Assembly: GCF_018502385.1 (NCBI RefSeq)
Contig: NZ_CP075523.1
Coordinates: forward strand, 2,108,001-2,172,000
Length of the DNA stretch: 64,000 bases
Direction: 5' to 3'
Source: Synechococcus sp. LA31
GTDB lineage: Bacteria; Cyanobacteriota; Cyanobacteriia; PCC-6307; Cyanobiaceae
In this document: piece by piece, positions 18,648 to 22,104 of the stretch
How the letters are laid out: each line of letters opens with the position of its first letter
How positions within the stretch are numbered: the first letter of the stretch is position 1
Made by a program: the position numbers and the translations under genes
Notes under the pieces: generated by a model
Told to the model about the DNA's origin: nothing
Database searches by the model: none
Seen by the model: the letters and a program-made list of their open reading frames with translations, nothing else

Positions 18648-19403
18648 CTACAACCAAGGGTCGGCATCCCGATGGTTGGGGTCGGGCTTGCTCTCCTCAT
18701 CCCAGTCATCCCAGGCTTCATCCCTGGCGGTGACTGCGCGGCGAGGTTCGTCGTCGTCAGGCTCCGGCTCCTCCTCCAACCAACCTTCCAAGCGGTCATC
18801 GAAGCGATCGCCCACCTGCTGGAACTGCTCACGCAGGCGGGAGGTTTCTTCCGCAAACTGATCGCGCCAACGGCGGCCGCGCCGCAGAAACTCCTGGCGC
18901 ACGCTGGCCCGCGCCAAGGGCAAATCATCCAGCCCATTGAGGGCGGTGAGCACCTGGCCCGGCTGTTGATCGCGAATGCGCTCGGGGCTGAGGCGCCAGC
19001 GGCTGCTGCCGGGTAAACGCGGATCGCTGCGCGACACCAGGTAGTGGAGGATCTGGCCGGTGCTGAGCTCCACAGCTGCATCCGCCACCATGCCCATGAG
19101 CTCGCCGTGGCGATCGAGCAGGGCCGCCTCCATCAAGGTGGGTAATCGATCAGTGGTGGGCAGATCCGTATCAGCGCCGGGGCCCTGCACCAAGGCTTCC
19201 AGCTCTACCAGTCCGCGCAGTTGATCGAGCCGCCAGGCCTCGCGCCGATCCCCGAACGACGAAGGCTTGCTGATCCAGCCGAGCAACCGGTGCACAGGGG
19301 GGTGCATCCAAGCCAGCACCCCTGCGCCGTGATCGAGCCCCTGCTCGCAGCGCACCCGACGGCGCAGCAGATCACTCAACAGCAACTGCTCCGGCAGGCT
19401 CAC
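18648..19403 (-). CDS. PRC-barrel domain protein downstream of dnaN
   Basis: A 251-residue soluble protein starting with GTG 19403, which overlaps the dnaN stop as GTGA, so it is translationally coupled to dnaN. The region around residues 75-130 (AALLDRHGELMGMVADAAVE with flanking LVELEAL and ILHYLVSRSDPRLPG) fits a PRC-barrel fold. The C-terminal ~90 residues are charged, with LRRRVR-like and EEEPEPDDDEPRR stretches and probable coiled-coil character. The family is conserved next to dnaN in picocyanobacteria as far as I know, but its function is not established. A role near replication is only inferred from position. Confidence 0.75.
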   Translation of the reverse strand: MSLPEQLLLSDLLRRRVRCEQGLDHGAGVLAWMHPPVHRLLGWISKPSSFGDRREAWRLDQLRGLVELEALVQGPGADTDLPTTDRLPTLMEAALLDRHGELMGMVADAAVELSTGQILHYLVSRSDPRLPGSSRWRLSPERIRDQQPGQVLTALNGLDDLPLARASVRQEFLRRGRRWRDQFAEETSRLREQFQQVGDRFDDRLEGWLEEEPEPDDDEPRRAVTARDEAWDDWDEESKPDPNHRDADPWL

Positions 19404-20530
19404 TGGCGGATCTGCACCGGCATCACCAAGTAGGTGAAGGCCGAATCATCGTCAGGAGCCAGCACCACCGGCGTGGTGGGGGCATTGCAGCGCAGCTCCA
19501 CGCGCTCGGCGCTCATCGCCTTGAGGCCATCGAGCACATAGCGCACGTTGAAGGCGATCTGGATGGCATCACCGCTCACGTCAGCGGCGATGGCTTCTGA
19601 ACCACTGCCCACGTCTTGCGCATCGGTACTGATACTCAGCTGACCGGCCGCGGGATCACTGCTGATCTTCACCACGTTGTTGTGCTGATCAGCCAGCACA
19701 GCCACCCGCTCCAAAGCGCCCAGCAGACCCTTGCGGTCGAGCTTGAGACTGCGGGTAAAGCTCTCAGGGATCAGCTGGCGGTAGTTGGGGTAGGTGCCAT
19801 CGAGGCTGCGGCTGGTGAGCACCTGATCGGCGAACTGGAACACCACCTGGCCGTGATCACAGAACAGGCTCACCAGGTCGCTGCCGCCGCGGCTGGAGAG
19901 CAGCCGCTCCAGTTCGCGCAGCGAGCGAGCGGGCACGGTGACATCGAGATCCGCCCCACCCTCGGCGCTGTTTTGCAGGCGCAGCACAGCTAGGCGGTGG
20001 CCGTCGGTGGCAGCGCACTCCAGCCCATCGGCATTCAGGCCTAGATGCACGCCGGTAAGCAGCTGCTTGGCTTCATCGCCGCTGCTGGCAAACAGGGTGG
20101 CGCGCAGGCCTTTCACCAGCACCTCAGGGTCGAGCTTGATCGGTGTAGCGGCCTGGGCGAGGGGCAATTCGGGAAAGTCGTCGGCGGGCATGCCGCGCAT
20201 CTGATAGCTGCCGGAGGCGCTGGTGAGTTCCACCTGCTCGCCGCCTTCCTCACAGCTGAGGCTGATCGGGCTGTCAGCCGGCATGCGGGCCACGATTTCA
20301 CCGAACAACCGGGCCGGCAGGGTGATGGCGCCGCTGGTGTGCACCGAGGCGCTGAGGCTGGTTTGGATGCCGAGGCTCAAATCAAAGCCGGTGAGGCTGA
20401 GCCGGCCTGTGCCGGCGTCAGCGGTGAGCAGCACGTTGGCCAACACCGGATGGGTGGGCCGGCCTGCCACAGCGCGACTGACCAGCTGAAGGCTGGCGTT
20501 GAGTTCGGCCTGGGAGCAGACCAGCTTCAT
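19400..20530 (-). CDS. dnaN: DNA polymerase III subunit beta (sliding clamp)
   Basis: A 376-residue beta clamp conferring processivity on replicative polymerase. ATG 20530 gives MKLVCSQAELNASLQLVSRA, the normal start; a longer frame to 20563 adds unrelated residues. Three clamp domains are recognisable: PTHPVLANVLL with LTGFDLSLGIQT; VKGLRATLFASSGDEAKQLL with AATDGHRLAVLRL; and FNVRYVLDGLKAM. It ends with the conserved TYLVMPVQI. It reads away from the candidate origin immediately upstream, matching dnaN-oriC adjacency in cyanobacteria. Confidence 0.98.
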   Translation of the reverse strand: MKLVCSQAELNASLQLVSRAVAGRPTHPVLANVLLTADAGTGRLSLTGFDLSLGIQTSLSASVHTSGAITLPARLFGEIVARMPADSPISLSCEEGGEQVELTSASGSYQMRGMPADDFPELPLAQAATPIKLDPEVLVKGLRATLFASSGDEAKQLLTGVHLGLNADGLECAATDGHRLAVLRLQNSAEGGADLDVTVPARSLRELERLLSSRGGSDLVSLFCDHGQVVFQFADQVLTSRSLDGTYPNYRQLIPESFTRSLKLDRKGLLGALERVAVLADQHNNVVKISSDPAAGQLSISTDAQDVGSGSEAIAADVSGDAIQIAFNVRYVLDGLKAMSAERVELRCNAPTTPVVLAPDDDSAFTYLVMPVQIRQ

Positions 20531-20637
20531 GGCAGGGGCAAAGCGATCCCCACGCTTCCACAACGGGGCGGGAAGTGCAACGGGCCTGGCGAGCGGTTTC
20601 CCCGCGTTTCCCCATCCCTCCGTCTAACGGATCAAAA

Positions 20638-20649
20638 GGTTTTAAAACC
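20638..20649. repeat. Perfect 12-bp palindrome GGTTTTAAAACC in the AT-rich patch of oriC
   Basis: The sequence GGTTTTAAAACC equals its own reverse complement. It lies in the only AT-rich patch of the region (about 20630-20660), 108 bp upstream of the dnaN ATG. It could be part of a DNA-unwinding element or an operator for dnaN. The sequence alone does not decide. Confidence 0.5.
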
Positions 20650-20726
20650 AAAATCCCAATCCGTAGCCGTAGAGGGTGGGGAAACACCGCAAAAGCCACC
20701 AAACCCTTTGCACCGCAGTGGTTTTT

Positions 20727-20735
20727 GTTTCCACA
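20727..20735 (+). other. DnaA-box-like site GTTTCCACA
   Basis: It matches eight of nine bases of the cyanobacterial DnaA box TTTTCCACA and lies in the candidate origin. Confidence 0.6.
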
Positions 20736-20797
20736 AGCCTGGTGAATGATTCGGCGGGTTTGGCGCGAAGTAGGCGTTTTCCGCGAAATCCCGCTGC

Positions 20798-20806
20798 TGT
20801 GGAAAT
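20798..20806 (-). other. DnaA-box-like site (reverse) ATTTCCACA
   Basis: The top strand reads TGTGGAAAT. Its complement matches eight of nine bases of TTTTCCACA, in opposite orientation to the flanking boxes. Confidence 0.6.
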
Positions 20807-20862
20807 CTGCGCCTGGATCAGGGGGTTGGTCGGCCTCTGTTTTCCCGTGGGGCAACCCATGG

Positions 20863-20871
20863 TTTTCCCCA
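20863..20871 (+). other. DnaA-box-like site TTTTCCCCA
   Basis: It matches eight of nine bases of TTTTCCACA (A to C at position 7). GTTGTGGG follows directly, so a further degenerate reverse half may adjoin it. Confidence 0.5.
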
Positions 20872-20920
20872 GGTTGTGGGCAGACGCTTTGTGGGTTGGC
20901 TCGCTGCATGAGCAACCAGC

Positions 20921-20951
20921 AAAAAGCCCCGCCGGGATCAACCGGCGGGGC
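20921..20951 (-). terminator. Rho-independent terminator of thrC
   Basis: A 10-bp perfect GC stem (20926-20935 pairing with 20942-20951) with a 6-base loop. On the minus strand it is followed by five U (A5 on the plus strand at 20921-20925). It lies 32 bp past the thrC stop and would shield the origin from leftward transcription. Confidence 0.9.
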
Positions 20952-20982
20952 TATGGAGGCTGCGCTCGTTTCGGTTGTGGCC

Positions 20983-22041
20983 TCAGAAGCCCATCACCCG
21001 GGCCACGGTGGCGGTCTCCGGTTCAAGGCCGGTGTGGAACTTCGAGTCGTTGTGCTCGATCGCCGTGGTGGGGTCCTTGAGGCCGTTGCCGGTGAGCACG
21101 CACACCACCGTGGCCCCCGCTGGCACCTCGTGACGACGTTTGATCAGGCCGGCCACGGAGGCGGCACTGGCGGGCTCGCAGAACACGCCCTCACCACTGC
21201 CCAGCAGCTTGTAGGCCTCGATGATCTCGGCGTCGGTCACAGCCATGAAATCACCGTTGCTCTCGCTTCTCGCCTTGAGCGCCCGCTCCTTATTCACCGG
21301 GTTACCGATGCGGATGGCGGTGGCGATTGTGTCGGGCTGCTCCACCGTGTGGCCCAGCACCAGGGGGGCTGATCCAGCGGCCTGGAAGCCCATCATGCGG
21401 GGAAGGCGGCGGCTGTGGCCGGCGGCCTTGTATTCGTTGAAGCCCATCCAGTAGGCGCTGATGTTGCCGGCGTTGCCCACGGGGATGCACAGCCAATCGG
21501 GGGCCTCGCCCAGGGCATCCACCACCTCGAAGGCGGCGGTTTTCTGGCCCTGCAGGCGGAAGGGGTTCACCGAGTTCACCAGGGTGATCGGGTATTGGTT
21601 CGCCACCTCCTGCACAATCGCCAGGGCCCGGTCGAAGTTGCCCTTCACGGCCAGCACTTCAGCGCCGTAGAGCAGGGCCTGGGCGAGCTTGCCCTGGGCC
21701 ACATAGCCATCGGGGATCAGCACGAAGGCGCGCATGCCACCACGGCGCGCATAGGCCGCAGCTGCGGCTGAGGTGTTGCCCGTGCTGGCGCAGATCACCG
21801 CCTCGGAGCCCGCTTCCTTGGCCTTGGAGATGGCCATGGTCATGCCCCGGTCTTTGAAGGAGCCGGTGGGGTTAAGGCCGTCGTATTTGAGGAACACCTT
21901 CACGCCCTTGCCGATCCGCTCGGCGATCACCGGGGCGGGGATCAGGGGGGTGGCGCCTTCGCGCAGGGTGATCACCGGCGTTTTGTTGCTCACCGGCAGC
22001 CACTTGCGGTAGCCCTCGATCAGACCGGGCCAGTCCTGCAT
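20983..22041 (-). CDS. thrC: Threonine synthase
   Basis: A PLP enzyme converting O-phosphohomoserine to threonine, 352 residues from ATG 22041 (MQDWPGLIEGYRKWLPV). A GTG at 22074 would add 11 residues. Signatures are TPVITLREGATPLIPA, GLNPTGSFKDRGMTMAISKA (Schiff-base lysine in SFKDRG), ICASTGNTSAAAAAYARR, PVGNAGNISAYWMGF and FCEPASAASVAGLIKR. It completes the threonine branch that begins with lysC in this window. It is followed by a strong terminator beside the candidate origin. Confidence 0.97.
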   Translation of the reverse strand: MQDWPGLIEGYRKWLPVSNKTPVITLREGATPLIPAPVIAERIGKGVKVFLKYDGLNPTGSFKDRGMTMAISKAKEAGSEAVICASTGNTSAAAAAYARRGGMRAFVLIPDGYVAQGKLAQALLYGAEVLAVKGNFDRALAIVQEVANQYPITLVNSVNPFRLQGQKTAAFEVVDALGEAPDWLCIPVGNAGNISAYWMGFNEYKAAGHSRRLPRMMGFQAAGSAPLVLGHTVEQPDTIATAIRIGNPVNKERALKARSESNGDFMAVTDAEIIEAYKLLGSGEGVFCEPASAASVAGLIKRRHEVPAGATVVCVLTGNGLKDPTTAIEHNDSKFHTGLEPETATVARVMGF

Positions 22042-22104
22042 GGCCGGGCGGCGTCTGAAGGGCAGCAGGGGCACGGGTGGCTGGGGCGCGGTCTAGAGCC
22101 GAAT

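What the first reader, a model, noticed from the sequence alone, without database searches (positions are those of the whole stretch)
20531..20918. Probable chromosomal replication origin with clustered DnaA-box-like repeats
The only long non-coding stretch of the window lies directly upstream of dnaN. It contains three 8/9 matches to TTTTCCACA (two forward, one reverse), several 7/9 copies, and an AT-rich patch with a perfect 12-bp palindrome. A strong terminator closes it on the thrC side. Position and repeats fit a cyanobacterial oriC.
Basis: partly seen in the sequence, partly recalled or inferred. Interest (0 to 1): 0.6.

Follow-up and report, generated by a model that had tools for sequence, protein, structure and literature searches.

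The report
Replication origin with cytosine-substituted DnaA-trios
The stretch beside dnaN is very probably where this cyanobacterium starts copying its chromosome, and the short repeats where the strands should open carry cytosine in place of adenine at every second copy, a swap seen again and again in its relatives and the one that laboratory work on another bacterium found tolerable.

Summary
The region has three 8/9 and four 7/9 TTTTCCACA-like boxes, more than chance. GC, AT and keto skew flip at dnaN and flip back about 180 degrees away. It is the densest TTTCCNCA cluster in an 864-kb sample of the genome. Same-genus relatives keep its boxes.

The new point is the strand-opening element. 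On the dnaN strand it reads box GTTTCCCCA, spacer CCCT, CTA CGG CTA CGG, so the strand DnaA would hold is 3'-GAT GCC GAT GCC-5'. Prochlorococcus and 17 of 20 genomes of other cyanobacterial families keep canonical DnaA-trios. The published (NAN)x3 search rule finds nothing here. In 94 Cyanobiaceae origins the captured middle base of trios 1-4 is A 274, C 96, T 6, G 0. In B. subtilis, C is the one substitute for that A that works (PMC10721633). Contact residues in DnaA are unchanged.

By kind it is an ordinary cyanobacterial oriC, with a repeated A-to-C variant of the DnaA-trio that my searches did not find in print. Perfect TTTTCCACA tandems lie elsewhere, mostly beside DUF2811 genes.

The parts
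19400..20530 (-). dnaN (sliding clamp); start ATG at 20530
   Evidence: Pfam DNA_pol3_beta 1-3; conserved MKLV start in relatives. The TTG start at 20563 given by the mechanical ORF list is not supported.
20531..20918 (.). oriC intergenic region
   Evidence: skew flip, box cluster, conservation in 18 aligned loci
20550..20563 (-). conserved dnaN-proximal box TTGTGGAAGCGTGG (7/9 DnaA box), directly upstream of dnaN
   Evidence: nearly invariant in 18 aligned loci
20606..20614 (+). GTTTCCCCA, 7/9 box
20630..20660 (.). AT-rich unwinding patch; holds the palindrome 20638-20649, which only 1 of 18 aligned loci (the window itself) has
20661..20672 (+). variant DnaA-trios 1-4; bound strand is window +, 3'-GAT GCC GAT GCC-5' (dnaN strand CTA CGG CTA CGG)
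   Evidence: homologous to the CTACTACTAC trios of relatives
20673..20676 (-). 4-bp spacer CCCT between box and trios
   Evidence: same 4-bp spacing in relatives
20677..20685 (-). trio-proximal DnaA box GTTTCCCCA
   Evidence: TTTCC[N]C core conserved
20727..20735 (+). DnaA box GTTTCCACA (8/9)
   Evidence: conserved in most relatives
20777..20785 (+). TTTTCCGCG, 7/9 box
20798..20806 (-). DnaA box ATTTCCACA (8/9)
20863..20886 (.). distal conserved block: TTTTCCCCA (+) at 20863-20871, facing a TGYCCACAA box (-)
   Evidence: conserved in 18 aligned loci
20925..20952 (-). intrinsic terminator hairpin of the thrC-like gene, closing the region
20983..22074 (-). thrC-like PLP-dependent enzyme
   Evidence: Pfam PF00291

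Best explanation
This is the chromosomal replication origin of a Vulcanococcus-like picocyanobacterium. DnaA, made from a gene about 1.0 Mb away on the circle, binds the degenerate TTTTCCNCA-type boxes on both sides. From the trio-proximal box at 20677-20685 a DnaA filament runs through a 4-bp spacer onto the window + strand and captures bases of four trinucleotides, 3'-GAT GCC GAT GCC-5', opening the duplex toward the AT-rich patch at 20630-20660 and dnaN. The trios are a derived form of the canonical cyanobacterial 3'-GAT-5' trios: the captured middle adenine has been replaced by cytosine in trios 2 and 4. Such exchanges occurred many times within Cyanobiaceae and went to C, rarely T, never G. 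The likely reason is that DnaA contacts the exocyclic amine that A and C share. Shown here: position, skew, boxes, homology of the trios, the A/C pattern and the unchanged DnaA residues. Inferred: that DnaA binds these boxes, that opening starts here, and that the amine is what selection keeps.
For: Skew: GC, AT and keto skew flip at dnaN and at the antipode in the own genome; in relative G013 they also flip at dnaN. dnaA is present once. Densest TTTCCNCA cluster in the 864-kb sample. Box footprints conserved in 18 aligned loci. Trios: Prochlorococcus-type relatives have box, 4 bp, CTA CTA CTA at the same place; 17 of 20 genomes of other families carry middle A in trios 1-3, so C is derived. 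Middle bases in 94 sites (of 96 Cyanobiaceae loci examined): trio 1 A93 T1; trio 2 A58 C34 T2; trio 3 A70 C21 T3; trio 4 A53 C41; G 0 of 376. Fewest A/C changes on the dnaN tree are 10, 8 and 12 for trios 2, 3 and 4. Control middle positions of triplets 5-11 in the loci of GC 50% or more: A205 T63 C53 G50, against A66 C92 T4 G0 in trios 2-4 of 54 such loci. In the rest of the intergenic region T/C differences (1155) outnumber T/G (686), so mutation bias alone predicts the opposite. B. subtilis DnaA residues E183, N187, I190, I193, R202, K222, E223 and E228 are identical here and in 30 of 30 cyanobacterial DnaA loci. In B. subtilis C keeps trio function where G and T do not (PMC10721633, section 10 read).
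Against: No binding, unwinding or marker-frequency data. Boxes in the region are individually poor (none exact), while perfect tandem boxes lie elsewhere. The strict (NAN)x3 rule fails here (0 hits). Six of 376 middle bases are T, so the A/C rule is not absolute. The GC class of the loci changes only once on the tree, so a link between base composition and C cannot be tested independently. G013 shows an extra skew flip at about 2.0-2.1 Mb. ACAC, the commonest C pattern, could in part come from copying of a CTACGG hexamer, though AACA, AACC, ACCC and ACCA are not explained that way.
Confidence: 0.8

Rival explanations
1. It is oriC, but the C-bearing trios are simply decayed: opening rests on trio 1 (always A) and the AT-rich patch, and trios 2-4 drift under GC pressure.
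For: Trio 1 keeps A in 93 of 94; C is common in GC-rich loci.
Against: Drift should give C on the top strand, i.e. G on the bound strand, at least as often, since T/C differences outnumber T/G (1155 v 686); observed G 0 of 376. The first base of trios 1-4 stays G in 212 of 216 positions of the GC-rich loci, though the site finder used first bases, so that figure is partly built in.
Confidence: 0.15
2. The conserved CTACGRCTACGG and neighbouring blocks are a regulatory site or promoter of dnaN (or bind another protein), and oriC proper is the box cluster only.
For: The region is also the dnaN promoter region; a box touches the dnaN start.
Against: The element sits 4-5 bp from a DnaA box in other cyanobacterial families as well, 17 of 20, although its distance to dnaN there varies from about 115 to 580 bp, and it reads as canonical trios there.
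Confidence: 0.06
3. The chromosome does not use a DnaA-dependent oriC here (multiple or DnaA-independent origins, as in Synechocystis 6803); the cluster is a relic.
For: Such cyanobacteria exist (PMC7198777, passages).
Against: Regular two-point skew with one flip at dnaN, dnaA kept in 42 of 42 near-complete genomes among the 60 searched, and selection on boxes and trios.
Confidence: 0.03

Closest known systems
oriC of Synechococcus elongatus PCC 7942
   Same: Near dnaN, at a skew shift point, DnaA-bound, dnaA essential (PMC7198777, passages read); its DnaA opens its own box-plus-trio scaffold (PMC8287927, section 14 part 1 read).
   Different: No exact TTTTCCACA box here, and mixed A/C trios. 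The S. elongatus origin itself was not fetched by name; other families sampled have middle A in trios 1-3.
Basal unwinding system (BUS) of Bacillus subtilis: DnaA-box 6/7 plus DnaA-trios
   Same: Box, short GC-rich spacer, triplets with 3'-G first base, then AT-rich DNA; the DnaA residues that capture the bases are the same.
   Different: Middle base alternates A, C, A, C; strict (NAN)x3 rule not met; one clear proximal box.
Engineered B. subtilis origins with middle A changed to C in trios 1-3 (PMC10721633)
   Same: The same exchange, A to C, in the captured position.
   Different: Made in the laboratory, in trios 1-3; here it is natural, in trios 2-4, with trio 1 always A.

Membership tests
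Bacterial chromosomal oriC (dnaN type of cyanobacteria) | Skew sign change at the site | tested here: met
   repeated in G013 at dnaN
Bacterial chromosomal oriC (dnaN type of cyanobacteria) | Cluster of DnaA boxes beyond chance, next to dnaN | tested here: met
Bacterial chromosomal oriC (dnaN type of cyanobacteria) | Conserved in relatives at the same place | tested here: met
   (18 loci)
Bacterial chromosomal oriC (dnaN type of cyanobacteria) | Initiates replication in cells / binds DnaA | not testable with these tools
   needs marker frequency and ChIP
Basal unwinding system (BUS) | DnaA box (2 mismatches or fewer) within 16 bp of the trios, in the right orientation | tested here: met
   GTTTCCCCA, 2 mismatches to TTTTCCACA, spacer 4
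Basal unwinding system (BUS) | Three or more consecutive 3'-NAN-5' triplets | tested here: not met
   0 hits on both strands of the 430-bp region; rule taken from PMC8287927 section 13
Basal unwinding system (BUS) | DnaA base-capture residues present | tested here: met
   8 of 9 named residues identical, N196 is D
Basal unwinding system (BUS) | DnaA-dependent strand separation on this sequence | not testable with these tools
   in vitro assay needed

The most novel reading that the evidence does not exclude
DnaA reads an amine code, not an adenine code: natural DnaA-trios are 3'-G(A/C)N-5'. In Cyanobiaceae, mixed A/C trios evolved many times from all-A trios with no change in the contacting residues of DnaA. 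Trio 1 must be A and the later ones may be C. Searches that demand NAN triplets would then miss functional unwinding sites of this kind, perhaps including some of the roughly 15% of origins in which none was found.
Probability: 0.6. Interest if true: 0.65.

Novelty: new variant of a known kind. Interest (0 to 1): 0.5.

Why it matters
Finding oriC beside dnaN is expected. What is not expected is that the unwinding triplets depart from the published motif in just the one way that biochemistry in a distant bacterium allows, repeatedly and against the mutational grain. If true, it supports the base-capture model in nature, widens the motif used to find origins, and supplies a ready series of natural substrates (AAAA, AAAC, AACA, ACAC, ACCC) for in vitro tests with cyanobacterial DnaA.

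Tried and rejected
The antipodal position (747 and 754 kb) of two perfect tandem TTTTCCACA clusters first looked like a terminus element. In G013 the tandem is only 636 kb from dnaN and beside DUF2811, so a tie to the terminus was dropped. The palindrome as a functional element was rejected (1 of 18). A GC-content test across independent lineages was tried and has no power: the GC class changes once. The first site finders mis-anchored some loci on the upstream of two tandem boxes and were replaced. L173, L196, L197, L199, L200 and L202 were then placed by hand; L222 (not homologous upstream) and L223 (cut off) were left out, so 94 of 96. Five of the six hand-placed sites read AAAA and one reads ATAC.

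Not in print: searches were DnaA-trio with cyanobacteria, with cytosine, with Prochlorococcus (0 papers), with Synechococcus, and basal unwinding system. I read passages of PMC7198777, PMC10225481, PMC6669920, PMC13220808 and PMC8235120; passages, section 13 and part 1 of section 14 of PMC8287927; passages and section 10 of PMC10721633. Supplements were not available, so the phylum logos of PMC8287927 were not seen. The other papers were seen only in search listings.

Full report
What was checked. The window is bases 2,108,001-2,172,000 of a single-contig 2,752,051-bp genome. Its dnaN protein is 94% identical to that of Vulcanococcus sp. records, so it belongs to the picocyanobacteria (Cyanobiaceae; family name from general knowledge). 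The finding lies at 20531-20918, between dnaN (19400-20530, - strand) and a co-oriented thrC-like gene (20983-22074), both confirmed by Pfam.

The observation. Three one-mismatch and four two-mismatch copies of TTTTCCACA are present as described, against 0.23 (one mismatch or fewer) and 2.1 (two or fewer) expected (P 0.002 and 0.0045). The palindrome is there (20638-20649) but only 1 of 18 aligned loci, the window's own, has it. The terminator is strong and lies at 20925-20952.

Is it the origin? I sampled 40 stretches of 20 kb plus the window. GC skew is mostly negative and AT skew mostly positive from about 0.8 Mb up to the window, and the reverse beyond it round to about 0.74 Mb, with a few 20-kb samples of the other sign or near zero. 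Keto skew changes sign between samples at 2,108,001 and 2,124,001 and between 738,000 and 758,000. The cumulative GC-skew minimum inside the window is at 19730, inside dnaN. The antipode of the region is at about 752.7 kb. In relative G013 skew also flips at its dnaN (1.61 Mb), though that genome has a further flip near 2.0-2.1 Mb. dnaA is single and distant (395 kb). In the 864-kb sample the 8-mer TTTCCNCA occurs 78 times; 5 are in this region, the densest cluster found. With the stricter TTTTCCNCA the region has only 1 and three other places have 3 each, which is told here as a point against.

Conservation. Upstream DNA of dnaN from 18 same-genus loci, the window's own among them, was aligned. 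Conserved blocks, on the dnaN strand, are: TCTGYCCACAACCTGNGGAAAA, TTTTCCNCA, NGGAAAA, TGNGGAAA (most), TTTCCNC, then CTACGRCTACGG (with variants), an AT-rich patch, CCCGTTGC, and TTGTGGAAGCGTGG just before the dnaN ATG. These are box-like elements around one other motif.

The motif. CTACGRCTACGG follows a DnaA box by 4 bp. In Prochlorococcus-type relatives the same place reads CTACTACTACTA, and in 17 of 20 genomes of other cyanobacterial families a DnaA-like box with a 4-5-bp spacer is followed by three triplets with middle T on this strand, mostly CTA CTA CTA. That is the DnaA-trio: consensus 3'-GAT-5' on the other strand, held as single strand by a DnaA filament (PMC8287927, PMC6669920, passages and sections read). 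So the window's element is a diverged trio array, 3'-GAT GCC GAT GCC-5'. The published search rule, three or more consecutive NAN triplets within 16 bp of a box, returns nothing on either strand of the region. At the homologous place only 41 of 94 Cyanobiaceae sites have three middle adenines in a row in register; 57 of 94 satisfy the rule if any frame within 16 bp is allowed.

The A/C rule. I placed sites by the box core and by the first base of each triplet, without using the middle bases (six placed by hand). Of 96 Cyanobiaceae loci, 94 were usable. Bound-strand middle bases are: trio 1 A93 T1; trio 2 A58 C34 T2; trio 3 A70 C21 T3; trio 4 A53 C41. G occurs 0 times in 376. On a quick maximum-likelihood tree of the dnaN proteins the fewest A/C changes are 10, 8 and 12 for trios 2, 3 and 4. 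Since other families have A, the direction is A to C; this direction is inference. Rows of close relatives are not independent, and some records occur in both sets of loci, so the tree counts matter more than the cell counts. With the triplets further out (5-11) as control in loci of GC 50% or more, middle bases are A205 T63 C53 G50, against A66 C92 T4 in trios 2-4. If changes followed the control share of C, 30 of 35 would have P 7e-11 (rough, as it sets tree counts against cell counts). In the remaining intergenic DNA T/C differences exceed T/G (1155 to 686), so mutation alone would favour G on the bound strand, which is never seen.

Why C? In B. subtilis the amine of the middle adenine is held by Asn187; C, which also has an amine, works about as well in vitro and better than G or T in vivo (PMC10721633, section 10). 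The authors raised the possibility that other DnaAs recognise other sequences (passages). Aligned to that structure (8btg), this genome's DnaA has the same residue at 183, 187, 190, 193, 202, 222, 223 and 228; 196 is Asp, as in all 30 cyanobacterial DnaA loci read, including families with all-A trios. So the exchange of bases did not need a changed pocket. That trio 1 is never C suggests that the first captured base is more demanding; this is inference.

Other box clusters. Exact TTTTCCACA occurs 14 times (of 21 TTWTCCACA) in the genome, none in oriC. Tandem copies 11 bp apart occur at 747,148 and 753,770, a wider pair at 279,838 and 280,142. The tandem pattern hits 7 places in 25 same-genus genomes against 0 for the reversed control. 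Five of the 7 are beside a DUF2811 gene. In an alignment of the best DUF2811 locus from 13 genomes, both boxes (one mismatch or fewer) are present in 11, at least one in 12, and TGTGGAAAAC inside the gene in 13 of 13. These look like a DnaA-regulated or DnaA-titrating site, not a second origin; that is inference.

Verdict. oriC: very likely. Unwinding element: a variant of the known DnaA-trio, not a strict member by the published rule, supported by comparison and by known chemistry but not tested in the laboratory.

Noticed in passing
G000:C1:753770-754266 (L099, L100) and relatives L101-L112: A DUF2811 gene has a conserved upstream region with tandem TTTTCC[AC]CA boxes 11 bp apart about 250 bp before the start (both boxes in 11 of 13, at least one in 12 of 13) and an invariant TGTGGAAAAC inside its coding sequence (13 of 13), with fixed synonymous sites. 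Possible DnaA-regulated gene or DnaA-titration site; no paper with the word DUF2811 was found.
   Followed up: partly
G000:C1:2686643 and 279838-280142: Other exact TTTTCCACA copies also lie by DUF2811 paralogs: one 256 bp upstream (gene at 2686899), two at or near the gene at 279663-279896.
   Followed up: partly
G000:C1:747148-747438 (L007, L097): A tandem plus an inverted TTTTCCACA about 280 bp apart near a reverse-strand ORF that looks by eye like a type III glutamine synthetase (not searched), with TTGACAG-like repeats between.
   Followed up: no
window 20577-20584: GCAACGGG (CCCGTTGC on the dnaN strand) is invariant in 18 aligned loci between the AT-rich patch and dnaN; function unknown, possibly part of the dnaN promoter.
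   Followed up: no
G000:C1:395790: An exact TTTTCCACA lies inside the dnaA coding sequence.
   Followed up: no
L260 (G053), L267 (G057): These two genomes of other families have no one-mismatch boxes upstream of dnaN, although each has dnaA; they may be lineages that replicate without a dnaN-side oriC.
   Followed up: no
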